Shown: one piece after another, positions 29,434 through 36,664 of the stretch | Layout of the letters: the number at the start of each line of letters is the position of its first letter | How positions within the stretch are numbered: the stretch's first letter is position 1 | Assembly: GCF_016862935.1 (NCBI RefSeq) | Contig: NZ_BONX01000008.1 | Span: 62,001-126,000 of the forward strand | Length of the DNA: 64,000 nt | Reading direction: 5' to 3' | Origin: Plantactinospora mayteni | GTDB taxonomy: Bacteria; Actinomycetota; Actinomycetes; Mycobacteriales; Micromonosporaceae | Made by a program: the position numbers and the translations under genes | The notes under the pieces: model-generated | Told to the model about the DNA's origin: nothing | The model's input: the letters and a program-made list of their open reading frames with translations, nothing else | The model's database searches: none

Positions 29434-29778
29434 GTGGGTTTCTCCGTCAGGCATGTGGTGCACTCCAAACTGGTGCGCCTCCACCTGGTGGGCGAACTGG
29501 ACGTCACCGCCGCGCCGAAGCTCGGCGCGGAGATCGACCGGTTGGTCGACGACGGGCAGCACCGCCTGCTGGTCGACCTCGCGGAGCTGACCTTCTGCGA
29601 CTCCAGTGGTCTGGCGGCGTTCGTCCGGGGCGACGACCGGGCGGGCGCGGTGGGCGGCTGGCTCCGGTTGACCGGTGCGACCGGGCGGGTCGAGCGGGTG
29701 TTGCGGATCAGCGGCCTGGACGACTTGCTCCGTTATGACCGGGAACAGCATGACCCGGCCGCATTGGGTGACCGTTGA
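29434..29778 (+). CDS. STAS-domain anti-anti-sigma-like protein
   Basis: This 114-residue protein has the STAS fold, with ELDVTAAPKL and the phosphoacceptor loop TFCDSSGL (Ser57/Ser58), followed by LLRYDREQH. Phosphorylation of the loop serine by a serine kinase controls release of a sigma factor in the family (SpoIIAA/RsbV). No anti-sigma or RsbW-like gene lies beside it. GTG 29434 follows ggagg. An inverted repeat 27 bp upstream suggests regulated transcription. Confidence 0.88.
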   Translation: MGFSVRHVVHSKLVRLHLVGELDVTAAPKLGAEIDRLVDDGQHRLLVDLAELTFCDSSGLAAFVRGDDRAGAVGGWLRLTGATGRVERVLRISGLDDLLRYDREQHDPAALGDR

Positions 29779-29891
29779 TCCGTTAGAGTTCGCACTTCGC
29801 GCCGACGGTCGACAGCTTGCCGGAGACCACACCCTAGGCTGGTGACGCGGGTCGCCGTCGCACCATCCCAACGACCAGAGGCGGGTATGCC

Positions 29892-30338
29892 GTGGACGCA
29901 GCCGAGCCGACCCCTGTACGCATCCTGGTCGTCGACGACGACCCGGGCGACGTACTGATGATCGAGGAGGCGTTGGCCGACTCGGAGGTACCCAAGGCGA
30001 TCGACGTGGTGGGCGACGGCCAGGAGGCGATGGAGTTCCTGCGCCAGGAGGGGCGGCACCGCGAGGCTCCCCGGCCGGACATGATCCTGCTGGACCTGAA
30101 CATGCCCCGGATGGACGGTCGGCAGGTGCTCAACAAGGTCAAGAGCGACGACCGGCTGCGGACCATCCCGATCGTCGTGTTGACCACGTCCAACGCCGAC
30201 ACGGACATCCTCGGCAGCTACAACCTGCGGGCCAACGCGTACGTCACCAAGCCGATCGACCTCGACGACTTCAACGACGTGATCCGGCGGATCGACGAGT
30301 TCTTCGGGCAGATCGTGGTGCTGCCGAAACAGCCCTGA
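29892..30338 (+). CDS. CheY/Rcp1-like single-domain response regulator
   Basis: This 148-residue receiver has VVDDDPGD (Asp15-17), the phosphoacceptor Asp68 in LLDLNMPRMDG, Thr98-Thr99 in VVLTTSN and Lys120 in YVTKPIDL. It has no output domain and resembles Rcp1-type receivers that partner bacteriophytochromes and other sensor kinases. No kinase gene is adjacent. GTG 29892 is the first in-frame start of the conserved core. The tail (FFGQIVVLPK) is typical of the subgroup. Confidence 0.9.
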   Translation: MDAAEPTPVRILVVDDDPGDVLMIEEALADSEVPKAIDVVGDGQEAMEFLRQEGRHREAPRPDMILLDLNMPRMDGRQVLNKVKSDDRLRTIPIVVLTTSNADTDILGSYNLRANAYVTKPIDLDDFNDVIRRIDEFFGQIVVLPKQP

Positions 30339-30439
30339 GCGGGCCGAATGCTGAAGAATTTTCCGGATCCGCCTCGGTGGCCCTGCCGATTGACCAGGAT
30401 TTCAGGTGGTAGGTGACATCGGCTTCCTGGGGGCGAAGC

Positions 30440-30949
30440 ATGGAGTTCTCCGTCGTGCAAACAGGCTATGACCAGCAGCAGGTCGACCGCTGCCTGGAAG
30501 ATCTGGGTGAGCGGCTGGCCCGGTTGGCGGTGCGGACGGACGCCGCCGCACGAACGAATCCCGAACTGGCCCGGCTGCAGGCCGAGATCACCCGGCTCGG
30601 CGAGTTGCTGACCGTGCGACCGGTCTCCGCCGACCGGTCCGGCTCGGCCGCCCGCCAGGTCCTGCTTACCGCCGAGCGGGAGGCGGCCGAGATCCTGGCC
30701 CAGGCCCGGGCCGACCTCGCGGCCGCCCGCGAGGAGGCCCGCCAGGTACGCGACCAGGTCTACGCCGAGGCGGTGCAGGCCCGGCGGGACTTCGAGGCGG
30801 CGCTGCACGTGCGGCGGATCCGCGCCGAGCGGGCCGACGAGATCCTGCGGGACGTCGCCGTCCCGGGAGAACAGCGACTGGCCGCCGACCGGATGGCGGC
30901 CGACCGGATGGCGACGCCGGGCGACGCCCTGGCGGCCCCGGCCTCCTGA
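30440..30949 (+). CDS. DivIVA-domain coiled-coil protein
   Basis: This 169-residue protein has an N-terminal DivIVA-like motif FSVVQTGYDQQQVDRCLEDL, then a long predicted coiled coil (about residues 55-140) of Ala/Arg/Glu-rich heptads such as AAREEARQVRDQV. The C-terminus is a short repeat RMAADRMA. DivIVA and GpsB proteins mark poles or septa and recruit wall enzymes; this is a short form without the long tail of actinobacterial Wag31. ATG 30440 begins the motif. Confidence 0.8.
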   Translation: MEFSVVQTGYDQQQVDRCLEDLGERLARLAVRTDAAARTNPELARLQAEITRLGELLTVRPVSADRSGSAARQVLLTAEREAAEILAQARADLAAAREEARQVRDQVYAEAVQARRDFEAALHVRRIRAERADEILRDVAVPGEQRLAADRMAADRMATPGDALAAPAS

Positions 30950-31160: not shown

Positions 31161-31829
31161 GTGGACGGGGCGACGGCGTACCTGGTGGCGGCGGCGGGGT
31201 TTCTGATCGCGGCGGCGGGCGTACTGGTGGCGGTGGTCGCGCTGCGTACCGCCCGGAGGCGGGCCGCCAGGCCGGCCGGGACACCGGTACGCGATCCGTT
31301 CCGGGCCACCGACGACGACGCCGACGCGCTGCGCGGCGATCCGCGTACCCTCAAGCCCGGCGACCTGGTGGAGATCCGGCACACCTCGTACGGGGTACGC
31401 GGCACGCTGCGGTTCACCGAGGGCGCCTGGGGCTGGGCGGAGCACCTGCTCGACGACGCGCACGGCGGCAAGCTCTGGCTCTCGGTCGAGGAGGACCCCG
31501 ACCTGGAACTGGTGCTCTGGACCGCGCTGCCGGACGCCGAGGTCGACCCTGGCCCGGCCGAACTGGAGGTCGGCGGCCGGCGGTACCGGCGTGACGAGTC
31601 GGGGCGGGCCACCTTCACCTCGGCCGGCAGCACCGGACTGCACCCGACCGGCACGGTCCGCTACCACGACTACGTCGCCGCCGACGGCTCCCTGCTCTCC
31701 TTCGAGGCGTACGGGGAGAGCGGGAAGTGGGAGGTCGGTACGGGGGAGCGGCTGCACCGGGCCGAGGTGCTGATCTATCCACAGGCGACGGACGGCGCCG
31801 ACGACCCGGCGGCGGGGCGGATCGGCTGA
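31161..31829 (+). CDS. DUF4178 protein with N-terminal helix
   Basis: This 222-residue protein opens with one transmembrane helix (about residues 10-30) and continues with the DUF4178 domain: LKPGDLVEIRHTSYGVRGTLRF, LWLSVEEDPDLELVLWT and YHDYVAADGSLLSFEAYGESGKW. The domain is a beta-rich module of unknown function. GTG 31161 has an aggag site. It starts a six-gene operon with DUF2617, DUF4247, DUF350 and a spermidine synthase-like protein, so a link to membrane polyamine metabolism is proposed. Confidence 0.88.
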   Translation: MDGATAYLVAAAGFLIAAAGVLVAVVALRTARRRAARPAGTPVRDPFRATDDDADALRGDPRTLKPGDLVEIRHTSYGVRGTLRFTEGAWGWAEHLLDDAHGGKLWLSVEEDPDLELVLWTALPDAEVDPGPAELEVGGRRYRRDESGRATFTSAGSTGLHPTGTVRYHDYVAADGSLLSFEAYGESGKWEVGTGERLHRAEVLIYPQATDGADDPAAGRIG

Positions 31830-31832
31830 ACG

Positions 31833-32366
31833 ATGCTGGTCACCCTGGACACCGCCTACGAGGACACCACCGCCGCCGAGCTGAGCCTCGCGCTCGACAC
31901 CCCGGAACAACCCGCGCTGCACCTGCTCGACCTCGGTCCGCTGACCCGCCTCGGCCGACCCGGGACCCGGCTCCAGCTCCGGCTGCTCGGCGCCTCCCAC
32001 CAGGTGGTGCTGGAAGGTGCCGGTGGCGGCCTGATCGAGACGGTGGCCTGCCTGCCCGGCCGGCGCCCCGAACTGCCGGCGACCCTGGCCGACCCGGCCA
32101 CCGGCTACCGGTTCACCGCCCGGGTGCGGCGGCTGCCGGCGGTGCGGATGTCGGCCCGGACGGCCCGGCTGCGGCGCGACCTCGCCGACGACCCGTACGC
32201 CCTGGTCGGGGTCTTTCCCGGTGGGCCGGACGCGATTACCGCGCTGCGGGTGGCGTACCGGGCGGACCCGGGTGACGGGACGGGCGGGATCGGGTGGCGC
32301 ACCTGGCACGCGTACCCGCAGAGCGGCGAGCTGGTCGAGACGGAGACGGTGGTGACGGCGGTATGA
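31833..32366 (+). CDS. DUF2617 protein
   Basis: This 177-residue soluble protein has the DUF2617 pattern TLDTAYEDTTAAELSLALD, LQLRLLGASHQVVLEG, TVACLPGRRPELPATL and the ending VGWRTWHAYPQSGELVETE. DUF2617 is a small beta domain of unknown role, usually found beside DUF4178 and DUF4247 in actinobacteria. It starts 3 bp after the DUF4178 stop and its own stop overlaps the next start by ATGA, so translation is coupled. Confidence 0.87.
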   Translation: MLVTLDTAYEDTTAAELSLALDTPEQPALHLLDLGPLTRLGRPGTRLQLRLLGASHQVVLEGAGGGLIETVACLPGRRPELPATLADPATGYRFTARVRRLPAVRMSARTARLRRDLADDPYALVGVFPGGPDAITALRVAYRADPGDGTGGIGWRTWHAYPQSGELVETETVVTAV

Positions 32367-32788
32367 AGTACCGTGGCTGGTTCGTGATCGGCGGCGCGTT
32401 CGCGCTGGTGGGCGCCCTGCTCGCCGTCTTCGCCATCTTCCACGGCAACTTCTCCCCGCGCGGCTACGTGCAGGACCGGTACGCCCGGGCGGCGGCCCAG
32501 GACATCGGCGGGGACGCGACCGCGTACCGCTCGGACAAGGCGCCGAGCGTGGTGGCGGACGAGATCACCAGGGCCTGGCAGCCGGCCGACCGGTACGTCG
32601 ACGCCAGCGGCGTCTACCTGCGCTACGACGAGGACTCGGTGGTGATCCTGCCGCTGGCCGCCGGCTCGCTGATCCTGCTCGAACGGGTGGTCACCGCGTA
32701 TCCCCGCTACTCCGGCACGGTCGGCAACGCCTGGGGCTGGGGTCGCGGCAGTTCGGTCCGGGGCGGCGGCCCCGGCGCCGGCAAGTAA
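32363..32788 (+). CDS. DUF4247 protein, membrane-anchored
   Basis: This 141-residue protein has one N-terminal transmembrane helix (about residues 5-27, WFVIGGAFALVGALLAVFAIF) and a DUF4247 domain (VADEITRAWQPADRYVDASG, VYLRYDEDSVVILPL), ending in a Gly/Ser-rich tail. The topology suggests an extracytoplasmic domain. ATG 32363 overlaps the DUF2617 stop (ATGA). Confidence 0.87.
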   Translation: MKYRGWFVIGGAFALVGALLAVFAIFHGNFSPRGYVQDRYARAAAQDIGGDATAYRSDKAPSVVADEITRAWQPADRYVDASGVYLRYDEDSVVILPLAAGSLILLERVVTAYPRYSGTVGNAWGWGRGSSVRGGGPGAGK

Positions 32789-32842
32789 CCGTTCCGCTCG
32801 CTCCACCATCACCCCCACCTCCTCATCCCTCCGGAGCCTGAT

Positions 32843-33268
32843 GTGTTGACGACCCTCGCCACCGACCTGCTGGCCACCCTCGCCTACGGGGTGGTCGGGC
32901 TGCTGCTGATGGCCGTCGGCTACCTGCTGGTCGACGTGGCCACCCCGGGCCGGTTGCACGAGCTGATCTGGGCCGACCGCAACCGCAACGCCGCCCTGCT
33001 GCTCGCCTCGAACCTGGCCGGGGTGGGCGTCATCGTGACCACGGCGATCGTGGTCAGCCACGACGGCCTCGTCGAAGGGCTGGTGAGCTGCGCCGCGTAC
33101 GGGCTGTTGGGGCTGCTGATCATGGCTGGCGCGTTCATGCTGCTGGACCTGGCCACCCCGGGACAGCTCGGCGAGATCCTGGTCGACCCCGAGCCGCACC
33201 CGGCGGTCTGGGTGTCGGCCGTGGTGCACCTGGCCACCGGCGCCGTGATCGCGGCGGCGATAAGCTGA
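32843..33268 (+). CDS. DUF350 membrane protein
   Basis: This 141-residue protein has four transmembrane helices in two similar halves: GLLLMAVGYLLVDVATPGRL and GLLIMAGAFMLLDLATPGQL. This internal duplication with the DxATPG motif is typical of DUF350 (YjfL) proteins. DUF350 proteins are linked by gene neighbourhood with polyamine and glutathionylspermidine genes in other bacteria. The GTG at 32843 is followed two bases later by an out-of-frame ATG. The next gene starts on its stop codon. Confidence 0.88.
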   Translation: MLTTLATDLLATLAYGVVGLLLMAVGYLLVDVATPGRLHELIWADRNRNAALLLASNLAGVGVIVTTAIVVSHDGLVEGLVSCAAYGLLGLLIMAGAFMLLDLATPGQLGEILVDPEPHPAVWVSAVVHLATGAVIAAAIS

Positions 33269-34122
33269 TGGCCGTCGGCGGGAACGGGAGCGGCGCGCGG
33301 CGCGGGAACGCGCGCCGGGCCCCCGCCGAGCGGGCGAGGGCGGCCCAGGGGACCGCCCGGCGACTCAAGATCATCCTGGGCGTCGTGCTGAGCCTGGCCT
33401 TCGCGGGGTTCATCCTCTACGGGGTACTGCTCCCCGACGGCGAGAGCACCGTGGTCCCGCTGCCCGCACCCGCCGAGCGGACCGACACCGTCACGCTGCT
33501 CCAGCGGGCGTACACGACCCAGCAGATCTGCTACGGCTGGCGGCTGCGTACCGGCGGAGCGGCGTTCGACACCGCACCGGTCAGCGTCGGCTCCAACCTC
33601 GGCGACAGCCTCGCGGCGGAGAGCGATCCGGCCCGCTGCCCCCGCTGGGTGGAGATCGACGCGGTGGTCTGGTACACCTCGGCCAGCAGCGAGGCGAGTG
33701 ACAGCGCCTCCTACCGGGTCAGCAGCTCTCCCGACCTGGCTCAGATCGACTTCGACCGGGGTCTGGCCCGGCTCGGCGTCGACCCCGACCAGTTCGTCGA
33801 CGATCCCGGCTGGGCGGTCTGCCAGGCGGCGGTGCTGCTGCCGCTGCTGGTCTCGGAGAACGGTGCCGGTTCGGCGACCCGGGCAGTGGTCGCGCCGGCC
33901 GCCGGGGCGGTGCCACCGGAACTGCCCGATCCCGGAAACGACTTCTGGCGCGACCGCTGGCCCCTGCTGCTCGGCGCCACCGGCATCCTGCTGCTCACCG
34001 CCCTCTTCCTGGCAATCGGCCGGTACGAGCGGCGGCACCAGCGGCCCGCACCGGCCGGGTCCGGCGCCGGGCCGACCGAGGACGCTGCCGGCGTACCCGG
34101 GAATGGGGGTCGCAGCCGGTGA
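33268..34122 (+). CDS. Unknown bitopic membrane protein of the DUF350 operon
   Basis: This 284-residue protein has a basic N-terminal tail, a transmembrane helix at about residues 34-56 (IILGVVLSLAFAGFILYGVLL), an extracytoplasmic domain of about 180 residues (with Cys in QQICYGW, ARCPRW and VCQAAV) and a second helix at about 230-252 (LLLGATGILLLTALFLAIG) before a basic tail. No domain is recognised. Its ATG overlaps the DUF350 stop and its stop overlaps the next GTG, so it is fully embedded in the operon. Confidence 0.75.
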   Translation: MAVGGNGSGARRGNARRAPAERARAAQGTARRLKIILGVVLSLAFAGFILYGVLLPDGESTVVPLPAPAERTDTVTLLQRAYTTQQICYGWRLRTGGAAFDTAPVSVGSNLGDSLAAESDPARCPRWVEIDAVVWYTSASSEASDSASYRVSSSPDLAQIDFDRGLARLGVDPDQFVDDPGWAVCQAAVLLPLLVSENGAGSATRAVVAPAAGAVPPELPDPGNDFWRDRWPLLLGATGILLLTALFLAIGRYERRHQRPAPAGSGAGPTEDAAGVPGNGGRSR

Positions 34123-35765
34123 CCGTGACCTCGGCCGACCGGCCGGCACCCGACGGTGTGCCCGCCGGGCCGCCCGACGCGGCAGGGCCCGGACCGGAGC
34201 CGGCCGCGCCGGCCAGCGGCCCGCGGCGGCGGGCGGCCCGGGCGGGGGTGCTCGGCGCGGTCTTCGTCTGCGCCGCCTGCGGCCTGGTCTACGAACTCGC
34301 CCTGGTGGCGCTCGGCAGCTACCTGATCGGGGACACCGTCGGCCAGGCGTCGATCGTGCTCGGCGTGATGGTCTTCGCGATGGGCATCGGGGCGCTGGTC
34401 GCCAAGCCGTTCCAGCACCGGGCCGCCGCCGCGTTCGCGGTCGTCGAACTCGCCCTCGCGCTCTTCGGCGGGCTCTCGGTGCTCGGCCTCTACGCCGCTT
34501 TCGCCTGGCTCGACCTCTACGCGCCGGCCCTGGTCGGCACCGCCCTGCTGCTCGGGCTGCTGATCGGGGCCGAGATTCCGCTGCTGATGGTGCTGTTGCA
34601 GCGGATCCGCGAACAGTCCGCCGGCAGCGCGGTCGCCGACCTCTTCGCGGCCGACTACGTCGGCGCGCTGCTCGGCGGCCTCGCCTTCCCGTTCCTGCTG
34701 ATGCCCTTCTTCGGCCAGCTTCGCGGGGTCCTGGTGGTCGGGGTGGTGAACGCGTTGGCCGGGCTGGCCCTGGTCGGCACGGTCTTCCGGCGGGAGCTGA
34801 CCGCCCGGGTCCGGGTCGCGCTGGCCGCCGGCACCGTCGCGGTCGGCCTCGTCCTCGGGTACGCCTACCTGACCGCCGCCGACTTCGAGGTGACCGCCCG
34901 CCAGCAGCTCTTCCGGGACCCGGTGGTGCACGCCGAGCGCAGCCCGTACCAGGAGATCGTGCTGACCCGGTCGGTGCCACTCGTCGCGCAGGGGGTCACC
35001 GACCTGCGGCTCTATCTCAACGGGGACCTCCAGTTCAGCTCGGTCGACGAGTACCGCTACCACGAGGCACTGGTGCACCCGGCACTGGCCGGCAGCCGGG
35101 GATCGGTACTGGTCCTCGGCGGCGGCGACGGGCTGGCCGTACGGGAACTGCTGCGCTATCCCGACGTCGGCGCGGTGACCGTGGTGGAGCTGGATCCGGC
35201 GGTGATCCGGCTGGCCCGGACCGAGCCGCAGCTGCGGGCGCTGAACCGGGACGCCTTCACCGATCCCCGGGTCACGGTGGTCAACGCCGACGCGTTCGGC
35301 TGGCTGCGCGGCCAGCCGGCCCGGTTCGACGCGGTGGTGGTGGACCTGCCGGACCCGGACGAGACGGCCACCGCGAAGCTCTACTCGGTGGAGTTCTACT
35401 CGCTGGTGAGGGCAGTGGTCGCCGAGCGGGGACGGGTGGTGGTCCAGGCCGGTTCGCCGTACTTCGCGCCCCGCTCGTACTGGTGCGTGGAGGCGTCGCT
35501 GCGGGCGGCCGGCTTCGGCACCGTGCCGTACCACGTCGACGTGCCCTCGTTCGGCGACTGGGGGTTCCTGCTCGCCGCACCCGGACCGGCGGCTCCGGCA
35601 CTGGGGCTGCCGGCCGACGTACCCGCGCTGCGCTACCTGGACGCCGGGACACTGCGGGCCGGCACGAACTTCCCGCCGGACCGGCAGCGGCTGGACCTGC
35701 CGCCGTCCACCCTGCTGCACCCCCGGGTGCTGGAGTACGCCCGCGCGGAGTGGCGCCGCTACTGA
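34119..35765 (+). CDS. Membrane-embedded spermidine synthase-like (polyamine aminopropyltransferase) protein
   Basis: This 548-residue protein has about seven transmembrane helices (residues 45-255) fused to a spermidine-synthase domain. The domain shows SPYQEI (polyamine site), LNGDLQFSSVDEYRYHEALVHP-type block, VLVLGGGDG (334-338, SAM/dcSAM site), VVELDP and DLPDPDETATAKLYS with the catalytic Asp. Substrate could be decarboxylated SAM plus putrescine, or another acceptor, at the membrane face. No SAM decarboxylase gene is in the operon, so the aminopropyl donor must come from elsewhere if that is the chemistry. Confidence 0.9.
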   Translation: MTVTSADRPAPDGVPAGPPDAAGPGPEPAAPASGPRRRAARAGVLGAVFVCAACGLVYELALVALGSYLIGDTVGQASIVLGVMVFAMGIGALVAKPFQHRAAAAFAVVELALALFGGLSVLGLYAAFAWLDLYAPALVGTALLLGLLIGAEIPLLMVLLQRIREQSAGSAVADLFAADYVGALLGGLAFPFLLMPFFGQLRGVLVVGVVNALAGLALVGTVFRRELTARVRVALAAGTVAVGLVLGYAYLTAADFEVTARQQLFRDPVVHAERSPYQEIVLTRSVPLVAQGVTDLRLYLNGDLQFSSVDEYRYHEALVHPALAGSRGSVLVLGGGDGLAVRELLRYPDVGAVTVVELDPAVIRLARTEPQLRALNRDAFTDPRVTVVNADAFGWLRGQPARFDAVVVDLPDPDETATAKLYSVEFYSLVRAVVAERGRVVVQAGSPYFAPRSYWCVEASLRAAGFGTVPYHVDVPSFGDWGFLLAAPGPAAPALGLPADVPALRYLDAGTLRAGTNFPPDRQRLDLPPSTLLHPRVLEYARAEWRRY

Positions 35766-35791: not shown

Positions 35792-36664
35792 TCAGACCAG
35801 CGCGCCGACCACGGTGCCGGCCCGCTCCTCGTGCTGGGCGTACGCGTCGGGGAACGCGGAGACCTGCACCGCCTGGGCGGCGGCGGTCACGCTCATCTCC
35901 TGCCAGCCGGGGATCTCGAGCAGGGCCGCGTAGAACTGCTCGGCCGCGTACGCCGGGCGCATCAGGTCCGCGACGGTGCCCCAACCGGAGCTGGGCCGCT
36001 GCTGGAACAGCCCGACCGAGTCGTGGTCGTAGCCGACACCCTGGTTCGGATAGTCCAGCGACTCCGGCAGTACGCCGCTGGCCAGGTTGTAGAGGTTGCT
36101 CTCCTGCATGGCGGTGGCGATCGCGACCACCAGGCCCCGGCGCGGGAGGTCCATCTTCACCCCGACCTGGACGATGGTGTGCGCGTTGTCCATCTGCGCC
36201 TGGGTGAGCCCGGCGACCGGGGTCGGCTTGCTCGGCTTCTTGGTCACCCGGGCGACCTTGGTCTTGGCCAGCGACGGCCGGGCGGTCGGGGTGGGCGTGG
36301 CGGACGGGGCGCCGGTCGGGGTCGGCGGCGGGGTCGGTACCGGGGCTCGTTCGGTGGCCCGGGACGCGGGTTGGCGGTCGGCGCTGGCGGCGCGCTCGGC
36401 CAGCAGGCTGGCCGAGGCCGGGTCGGTCGGTGTGGTCGCCGCCCGCGACTCGACGAAGACCACCGCGCCGAGGCAGCAGGCCACCGCGGCGACCGAACCG
36501 ACCCGGACCGGGCCCGACGAGAGCAGTGCGCGGGTCCGGCGCAGCCGGCGTGGCGCTCCGGCCCGGTGGCGGCCGTTTAGCTGGTCGATGGAGCCGGCAT
36601 CAGCCGAACGGTCAGCCTGCGCTCCGTTGTCCTGTCCGCGATCAATCGGTTCCCTGTGAGGCAC
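35792..36664 (-). CDS. Membrane-anchored lysozyme/transglycosylase-like protein
   Basis: This 290-residue protein has a basic N-terminus, one transmembrane helix (about residues 52-75), a Pro/Thr-rich spacer (residues 108-135) and a C-terminal 120-residue helical domain with AIATAMQESNLYN, where Glu may be the catalytic acid, and a GVGYDHDSVGLFQQRPSSGWGTV block that is common in actinobacterial secreted lysozyme-like proteins. It probably cleaves or binds peptidoglycan outside the membrane. GTG 36664 is used and several starts are possible. Convergent with the spermidine synthase gene, with a 26-bp gap. Confidence 0.75.
   Translation of the reverse strand: MPHREPIDRGQDNGAQADRSADAGSIDQLNGRHRAGAPRRLRRTRALLSSGPVRVGSVAAVACCLGAVVFVESRAATTPTDPASASLLAERAASADRQPASRATERAPVPTPPPTPTGAPSATPTPTARPSLAKTKVARVTKKPSKPTPVAGLTQAQMDNAHTIVQVGVKMDLPRRGLVVAIATAMQESNLYNLASGVLPESLDYPNQGVGYDHDSVGLFQQRPSSGWGTVADLMRPAYAAEQFYAALLEIPGWQEMSVTAAAQAVQVSAFPDAYAQHEERAGTVVGALV

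What the first reader, a model, noticed from the sequence alone, without database searches (positions are those of the whole stretch)
31161..35765. Six-gene membrane operon built around a spermidine synthase-like enzyme
DUF4178, DUF2617, DUF4247, DUF350, an unknown two-helix protein and a seven-helix membrane protein fused to a spermidine synthase domain are packed with mostly 0-4 bp gaps or overlaps. Four of these have no known biochemistry. The enzyme has intact SAM-fold and polyamine-type motifs but its membrane fusion, and the association with DUF350 (linked to glutathionylspermidine genes elsewhere), suggest polyamine or aminopropyl modification of a lipid or membrane component. There is no SAM decarboxylase in the operon.
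Basis: partly seen in the sequence, partly recalled or inferred. Interest (0 to 1): 0.75.

Follow-up and report, generated by a model that had tools for sequence, protein, structure and literature searches.

The report
Operon whose DUF2617 may replace SpeD
A known but unexplained membrane gene cluster of soil bacteria carries an enzyme that needs a special form of a cell chemical, its genome shows no usual gene for making that form, and an uncharacterised neighbour gene called DUF2617 is found mostly where the usual gene is missing, so it is a good candidate for the missing enzyme.

Summary
The six genes are real and at the stated coordinates. The operon type is published (Ravi 2024), so the cluster is not new. 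New here is how it varies with AdoMet decarboxylase (SpeD, PF02675). The fused spermidine-synthase domain keeps its catalytic motifs, but the genome has no PF02675 match. That is common: of 60 actinobacterial genomes with this fusion in two overlapping samples, 57 carry DUF2617 (54 of these without SpeD), the 3 lacking DUF2617 have SpeD, and none lacks both. In 80 named genomes, 13 of 13 without DUF2617 have SpeD, against 4 of 65 with it (2 undecided). On the tree, absence of DUF2617 needs three changes, each in a SpeD-bearing lineage. Outside the phylum, SpeD lies within 7 kb of the fusion in 5 of 7 loci opened. DUF2617 conserves Ser-His, Cys, Thr and His in the order of the split active site of human AdoMetDC, but no AdoMetDC appears among the best fold matches and no Pfam model links them. 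Best reading: DUF2617 supplies decarboxylated AdoMet to a membrane-anchored aminopropyltransferase with an unknown, probably non-polyamine acceptor. Complementing an E. coli speD mutant would test the first half.

The parts
31161..31829 (+). DUF4178 protein, N-terminal TM-like segment plus DUF4178 domain
   Evidence: PF13785 E 3.8e-38; one TM-like segment; in 60 of 72 loci
31833..32366 (+). DUF2617: proposed source of decarboxylated AdoMet (SpeD replacement)
   Evidence: PF10936 E 4.4e-47; complementary to SpeD in distribution; AF2 model pLDDT 92.7
31995..32000 (+). DUF2617 S55-H56 of GASHQ; S55 is the proposed pyruvoyl precursor
   Evidence: invariant in 44 of 44; hhalign sets it opposite SpeD E-S-H, 9 columns, P 0.33, not significant
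32049..32051 (+). DUF2617 C73 of ETVAC; proposed proton donor
   Evidence: invariant in 44 of 44; 18 residues after S55 here; the spacing is 14 in 50 of 101 copies, as in human AdoMetDC
32238..32240 (+). DUF2617 T136 of FPG..A.TAL; proposed counterpart of the processing Ser/Thr
   Evidence: invariant in 44 of 44; lies in the C-half alignment with SpeD
32307..32309 (+). DUF2617 H159 of WRTWHAYPQ; proposed counterpart of SpeD HTYPE and human TIHITPE
   Evidence: invariant in 44 of 44; same alignment
32363..32788 (+). DUF4247 protein with N-terminal TM-like segment
   Evidence: PF14042 E 5.5e-20; 72 of 72 loci
32843..33268 (+). DUF350 (YjfL family), four TM-like segments
   Evidence: PF03994 E 6.4e-27; 72 of 72 loci
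33268..34122 (+). fifth gene, no family; two TM-like segments around a soluble stretch
   Evidence: no Pfam or NCBIfam hit; homologue in 28 of 72 loci
34119..35765 (+). 7-TM domain fused to a spermidine-synthase-type aminopropyltransferase
   Evidence: NF002956 676 bits; best PDB sequence match thermospermine synthase, E 4.8e-32; GGGD and DLPDP motifs

Best explanation
The operon encodes a membrane-anchored aminopropyltransferase system with its own donor supply. DUF2617 decarboxylates S-adenosylmethionine, possibly with a pyruvoyl group made from Ser55. The 7-TM/spermidine-synthase fusion then transfers the aminopropyl group to an acceptor at the membrane that is probably not an ordinary polyamine. 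DUF350, DUF4247, DUF4178 and the fifth protein form the membrane part. Shown: conserved operon, aminopropyltransferase motifs, no PF02675 match in the genome, complementary distribution of DUF2617 and SpeD, and SpeD close to the fusion in other phyla. Inferred: the activity of DUF2617, the pyruvoyl mechanism, the acceptor, and the roles of the membrane proteins.
For: Class sample, 197 genomes: fusion over cut-off in 57; DUF2617 in 54, all inside those 57; the 3 without it (G075, G132, G109) have SpeD; SpeD in 6 of the 57; neither in 0. Phylum sample, 246 genomes, overlapping the first: fusion 18; DUF2617 over cut-off 16, all inside; the other 2 have SpeD; three genomes of other families (G354, G387, G466) have fusion plus DUF2617 and no SpeD. 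Named set of 80: DUF2617 absent 13 (10 checked genome-wide, 3 by locus only), SpeD in 13 of 13; DUF2617 present 65, SpeD in 4; 2 loci too short to tell, no SpeD. Tree: three changes; in three independent pairs SpeD goes the other way. The key motif residues are kept with and without DUF2617: GGGD Asp 95 of 95 scorable and 13 of 13; first Asp of DLPDP 92 of 94 and 13 of 13. SpeD within 7 kb of the fusion in 5 of 7 non-actinobacterial loci opened. Order of invariant residues Ser-Cys-Thr-His as in human AdoMetDC. C half against SpeD profile scores 24.6, above all 500 column shuffles, maximum 18.0.
Against: No AdoMetDC among the 50 Foldseek matches printed for DUF2617 or for its C half. No Pfam AdoMetDC hit in 44 members at E up to 10. 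hhalign probabilities are low: 20.8%, 5.3% full length with deeper alignments, 32.7% C half. Of five control alignments, DUF350 against SpeD scores 21.0 over 13 columns and the fusion against the C half 21.6, so 20.7 for full-length DUF2617 is weak. The N half with the proposed Ser and Cys aligns over 9 columns only (P 0.33), and the halves do not align to each other. Only three independent changes: the sign test cannot reach 0.05. Some genomes have both genes (3 of 57; 4 of 65). In Actinomycetota SpeD, where present, is not in this operon but elsewhere, in some beside or fused to a soluble SpeE. Haloferax volcanii has DUF2617 but no fusion over the cut-off.
Confidence: 0.5

Rival explanations
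1. The fusion uses AdoMet itself and transfers an aminocarboxypropyl group; DUF2617 decarboxylates the product afterwards (as recalled for microcin C, MccD then MccE).
For: No PF02675 match in the genome; would also explain why DUF2617 and SpeD rarely occur together.
Against: The key aminopropyltransferase motif residues are kept with and without DUF2617, so the donor is probably the same; the GGGD Asp is, from recall, one that contacts the amine of dcAdoMet.
Confidence: 0.12
2. DUF2617 is a scaffold or chaperone that stands in for the CesT/Tir-PspA pair of proteobacterial operons; its tie to SpeD is an accident of a few lineages.
For: Ravi 2024 describes DUF4247 plus DUF2617 as the replacement of that pair. 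Weak fold matches include EspG chaperones and SciW, and LpqN and DcrB. Only three independent changes.
Against: Invariant Asp, Ser, His, Gln, Glu, Cys, Thr and His look catalytic; none of the 60 sampled fusion genomes lacks both genes; Ravi too calls it an enzymatic domain.
Confidence: 0.3
3. The fusion is an ordinary spermidine synthase fed by an unknown AdoMet decarboxylase elsewhere in the genome.
For: Motifs and family of polyamine aminopropyltransferases.
Against: Recalled abstract of Li 2019 (not held): such fusions did not restore spermidine to a SpdSyn mutant. An unknown decarboxylase would not explain the link with DUF2617.
Confidence: 0.08

Closest known systems
PSP-associated polyamine operons, DUF4247/DUF2617 variant (Ravi 2024, PMC11237479; passages read)
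   Same: DUF4178, DUF350, 7TM-spermine synthase fusion, DUF4247, DUF2617 appear among these operons; aminopropylation of other substrates is suggested in general terms
   Different: The passages read do not connect DUF2617 with AdoMet decarboxylation or with the absence of SpeD, and do not mention a further two-TM gene like the window's fifth
MFS-SpdSyn with polyamine-independent AdoMetDC (Li 2019, Biochem J; seen as a citation, text not held, abstract recalled)
   Same: Same kind of membrane/aminopropyltransferase fusion, with a dcAdoMet supplier
   Different: There the supplier is a true SpeD; here no SpeD is found and DUF2617 sits in the operon
AdoMet decarboxylase classes 1 and 2 (PF02675, PF01536)
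   Same: Order and partly spacing of Ser, Cys, Thr/Ser, His; a short SpeD-like stretch in the C half
   Different: No family-level sequence match, no AdoMetDC among printed fold matches, mostly beta model with one helix, about 165 residues

Membership tests
PRK03612 / 7TM-spermidine synthase fusion | score over the curated cut-off along the full length | tested here: met
   676 bits against 472, residues 32-547
PRK03612 / 7TM-spermidine synthase fusion | aminopropyltransferase motifs GGGDG and D..DP intact (motif roles recalled) | tested here: met
   present in the window sequence; GGGD Asp 95 of 95 and 13 of 13, first Asp of DLPDP 92 of 94 and 13 of 13
Spermidine synthase (makes spermidine) | activity on putrescine | not testable with these tools
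   no bench work
PSP-associated operon, DUF4247/DUF2617 variant | DUF4178, DUF2617, DUF4247, DUF350 and fusion together | tested here: met
AdoMet decarboxylase (DUF2617) | match to PF02675 or PF01536 | tested here: not met
   44 members, E up to 10
AdoMet decarboxylase (DUF2617) | AdoMetDC fold | tested here: inconclusive
   no AdoMetDC in the 50 printed of 1171 and of 1111 Foldseek matches; the second aligner was not available
AdoMet decarboxylase (DUF2617) | pyruvoyl Ser, Cys, Ser/Thr and His in order (roles recalled) | tested here: met
   S55, C73, T136, H159 invariant in 44 of 44; a pattern, not proof of homology
AdoMet decarboxylase (DUF2617) | self-cleavage and AdoMet decarboxylation | not testable with these tools
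   needs bench work

The most novel reading that the evidence does not exclude
DUF2617 is an unrecognised AdoMet decarboxylase, a compact pyruvoyl enzyme with a split active site like the eukaryotic class 2 form, found in Actinomycetota and at least one haloarchaeon. It feeds a membrane aminopropyltransferase with a non-polyamine acceptor in bacteria that show no other gene for making decarboxylated AdoMet.
Probability: 0.42. Interest if true: 0.85.

Novelty: new variant of a known kind. Interest (0 to 1): 0.68.

Why it matters
Of the 60 sampled actinobacterial genomes with this fusion, 54 show no PF02675 AdoMet decarboxylase, and neither does the control Corynebacterium glutamicum, so the enzyme annotated as polyamine aminopropyltransferase has no visible donor there. 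Naming one candidate gene, in the same operon, makes this testable with a standard complementation assay. If right, it gives a first biochemical role to DUF2617, explains part of a widespread orphan operon, and suggests that aminopropyl chemistry apart from polyamines is common in this phylum.

Tried and rejected
Tried and not helpful: DUF2617 against plasmids (none, then only chance-level matches, best E 5e-3); PDB sequence search with the DUF2617 profile (0 at E up to 10); viral fold library (nothing at E 0.001 or better); PF01536 in 197 genomes (0, but no control rang, so it shows little); second structural aligner (not available).

Rejected: DUF2617 as a plain SpeD homologue by sequence or fold. 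A dead spermidine-synthase domain (by motifs). Genes that merely happen to be neighbours. A chance run of ORFs.

Results against my reading: the full-length hhalign score (20.7, above 300 of 300 column shuffles, maximum 18.7) is no better than the DUF350 control (21.0), and the fusion against the C half gives 21.6. Only three independent changes. The fusion copies with DUF2617 are a wider set and vary at other motif positions, e.g. the Q of QFSS is R in 15 of 96 and the E of VVE is D in 36 of 96, while the 13 without DUF2617 do not. SpeD-like genes in DUF2617-bearing genomes: in G026 (a named Streptomyces), G065 and G135 the Cys is missing; G213 has Ser for the His; G002 is weak, 56 bits; but G046 and G481 look intact. 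The Tritonibacter and Rhodovulum plasmids have no SpeD on the record; in Rhodovulum only part of the fusion was matched. The 80 named loci are the nearest 80 of 551 relatives, weighted to a few genera.
Full report
Observation. Pfam names five of them; the fifth gene has no family. NCBIfam places the last gene in PRK03612, polyamine aminopropyltransferase, over its full length. Gaps are 3, -4, 54, -1 and -4 bases, GC3 is 0.91-0.96, and the fusion has about seven TM-like segments. The nearest named relative is Plantactinospora endophytica, at 94% identity in the fusion.

The operon is conserved. Of 80 named loci fetched with the fusion protein (the nearest 80 of 551 relatives), 72 have at least 3.2 kb upstream. 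In these, DUF4247 and DUF350 are in 72, DUF2617 in 61, DUF4178 in 60 and the fifth gene in 28. DUF4178, DUF2617, DUF4247 and DUF350 keep one order; the fifth gene lies before the fusion in 23 loci and before DUF350 in 5. The 12 without DUF4178 are 10 Streptomyces and 2 Nocardia; the 11 without DUF2617 are 8 Nocardia and 3 Pseudonocardiaceae.

It is already in print. Ravi et al. 2024 (PMC11237479; passages read) describe a variant of PSP-associated polyamine operons in which DUF4247 and DUF2617 (their examples CCP45395.1 and CCP45394.1) replace a CesT/Tir-PspA pair. [quoted passage not shown] They also suggest aminopropylation of other substrates, citing Li et al. 2019, whose text is not held. 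From recall of its abstract: AdoMet decarboxylase genes co-occur with MFS-SpdSyn fusions, yet no spermidine is made and the fusion does not complement a SpdSyn mutant. Three papers of the held library contain the word DUF2617 (complete list); I read passages of two, which do not link it to AdoMet decarboxylation, and did not read the third (PMC9505326, an elephant serum proteomics paper). The listings of searches showed no such link either.

The donor problem. Aminopropyltransferases use decarboxylated AdoMet (general knowledge). The fusion keeps the key motifs: GGGD Asp 95 of 95 scorable copies with DUF2617 in the locus and 13 of 13 without; first Asp of DLPDP 92 of 94 and 13 of 13. Their role in binding dcAdoMet is recalled. 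Other motif positions vary more in the wider DUF2617-bearing set. The window's genome (9,841,081 bases, 123 contigs, 99.97% complete) has no PF02675 match, while the same search rings in 8 of 14 control genomes. It has two PF01564 matches, the window's and a weaker one on contig C46.

DUF2617 and SpeD complement each other. Class sample, 197 genomes: fusion over cut-off in 57; DUF2617 in 54, all among the 57; SpeD in 7, six of them among the 57. So 51 have DUF2617 only, 3 have both, 3 have SpeD only, none has neither. Phylum sample, 246 genomes overlapping the first: fusion 18; DUF2617 over cut-off 16, all among them (one further match below cut-off, in a genome without the fusion); SpeD 28, four of them among the 18. 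The two fusion genomes without DUF2617 have SpeD. Together 60 different fusion genomes: 54 with DUF2617 only, 3 with both, 3 with SpeD only, none with neither. Fisher p for SpeD against DUF2617 is 5.8e-4, without correction for kinship.

Named genomes, partly the same species as above. All 80 were searched for SpeD, 50 and 30. DUF2617 is absent in 13: ten confirmed over the whole genome, three Nocardia by locus only. All 13 have SpeD. DUF2617 is present in 65 (64 by locus, one by genome), of which 4 have SpeD. Two loci are too short to tell and their genomes have no SpeD. On the tree of the fusion protein (94 rows) the absence of DUF2617 needs three changes, and in three independent pairs SpeD goes the other way; three pairs cannot reach significance. 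None of the named loci has SpeD by its motif within the stretch fetched. In the three Pseudonocardiaceae SpeD lies beside a soluble SpeE-like gene and an ODC-like gene (the ODC-like label is my reading of the sequence). In four Nocardia it is in one frame with what looks like a SpeE, in another it stands apart (L174). Thus DUF2617 seems to be lost only where another source of dcAdoMet exists.

Outside the phylum. Of 19 plasmid records with a related gene I opened 7. A SpeD lies within 7 kb of the fusion in 5: Novosphingobium, Alteromonas, Ensifer, Gemmatirosa, and Burkholderia (there on the other strand). The Tritonibacter and Rhodovulum records hold none. No DUF2617 was found in the 7 loci (one stray match at E 0.008). 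DUF2617 also occurs in the controls Corynebacterium glutamicum and Haloferax volcanii, in which PF02675 does not ring. Corynebacterium has the fusion over cut-off; Haloferax matches only below it.

What DUF2617 looks like. In 44 sequences the invariant residues include D11, S55, H56, Q57, E69, C73, T136, W155, T157, H159. In 101 copies of at least 130 residues (some counted twice in overlapping loci) S-H and C, and T and H, can be read in all: by pattern in 93 and 90, by eye in the rest. Human AdoMetDC has S68 then C82 in its first half and S229 then H243 (TIHITPE) in its second, each 14 apart: letters checked, numbering and roles recalled. DUF2617 has S then C 14 apart in 50 of 101 copies and 18 in 37 (the window too), then T and H 14 to 40 apart. 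AlphaFold2 gives a confident mostly-beta model with one helix (pLDDT 92.7); the C half alone folds as beta-alpha-four-beta (pLDDT 92.6). hhalign finds the SpeD stretch F.P.GVT...HTYPE opposite FPG..A.TAL...WHAYPQ (P 0.0011, probability 20.8%, 31 columns). With deeper alignments the C half scores 24.6 over 49 columns (P 0.00047, probability 32.7%), above 500 of 500 column shuffles.

Against homology. Foldseek prints no AdoMetDC among its best 50 for the whole or the half; for the half they are Bet v 1-type proteins, DUF4468, DcrB and PsbP. Pfam shows no AdoMetDC match in 44 members. Two control comparisons score 21.0 and 21.6. So I do not file DUF2617 as a member of the AdoMetDC family. The claim is functional replacement; shared descent is an open side question.

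Verdict. The operon is real and known in outline. The distribution makes DUF2617 the best candidate for the missing donor enzyme of a membrane aminopropyltransferase. The activity, the acceptor and the roles of the membrane proteins are inferred, not shown.

Noticed in passing
G095, G153, G189: Three genomes of one genus code (g20) carry two fusion genes and two DUF2617 genes, each fusion with a DUF2617 gene within about 3 kb.
   Followed up: partly
L094, L096, L101, L102: SpeD-like proteins of a named Streptomyces (G026) and of G135 and G065 keep SASHLSIHTWPE but have AYG where active SpeD has TCG, so the catalytic Cys is gone; perhaps another decarboxylase.
   Followed up: no
L086, L087, L088, L090: Nocardia SpeD lies in one long frame with what looks like a soluble SpeE, suggesting a SpeD-SpeE fusion.
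   Followed up: no
L007:10055-10708 and L009:9347-10006: Two Micromonospora loci have a second DUF4178 gene downstream of the fusion.
   Followed up: no
window 35792-36664 (-): Convergent gene right after the operon; no Pfam or NCBIfam match.
   Followed up: partly
window 29434-30949: Upstream STAS protein, response regulator receiver protein and a weak DivIVA-like protein; a terminator-like stem lies between them and the operon.
   Followed up: no
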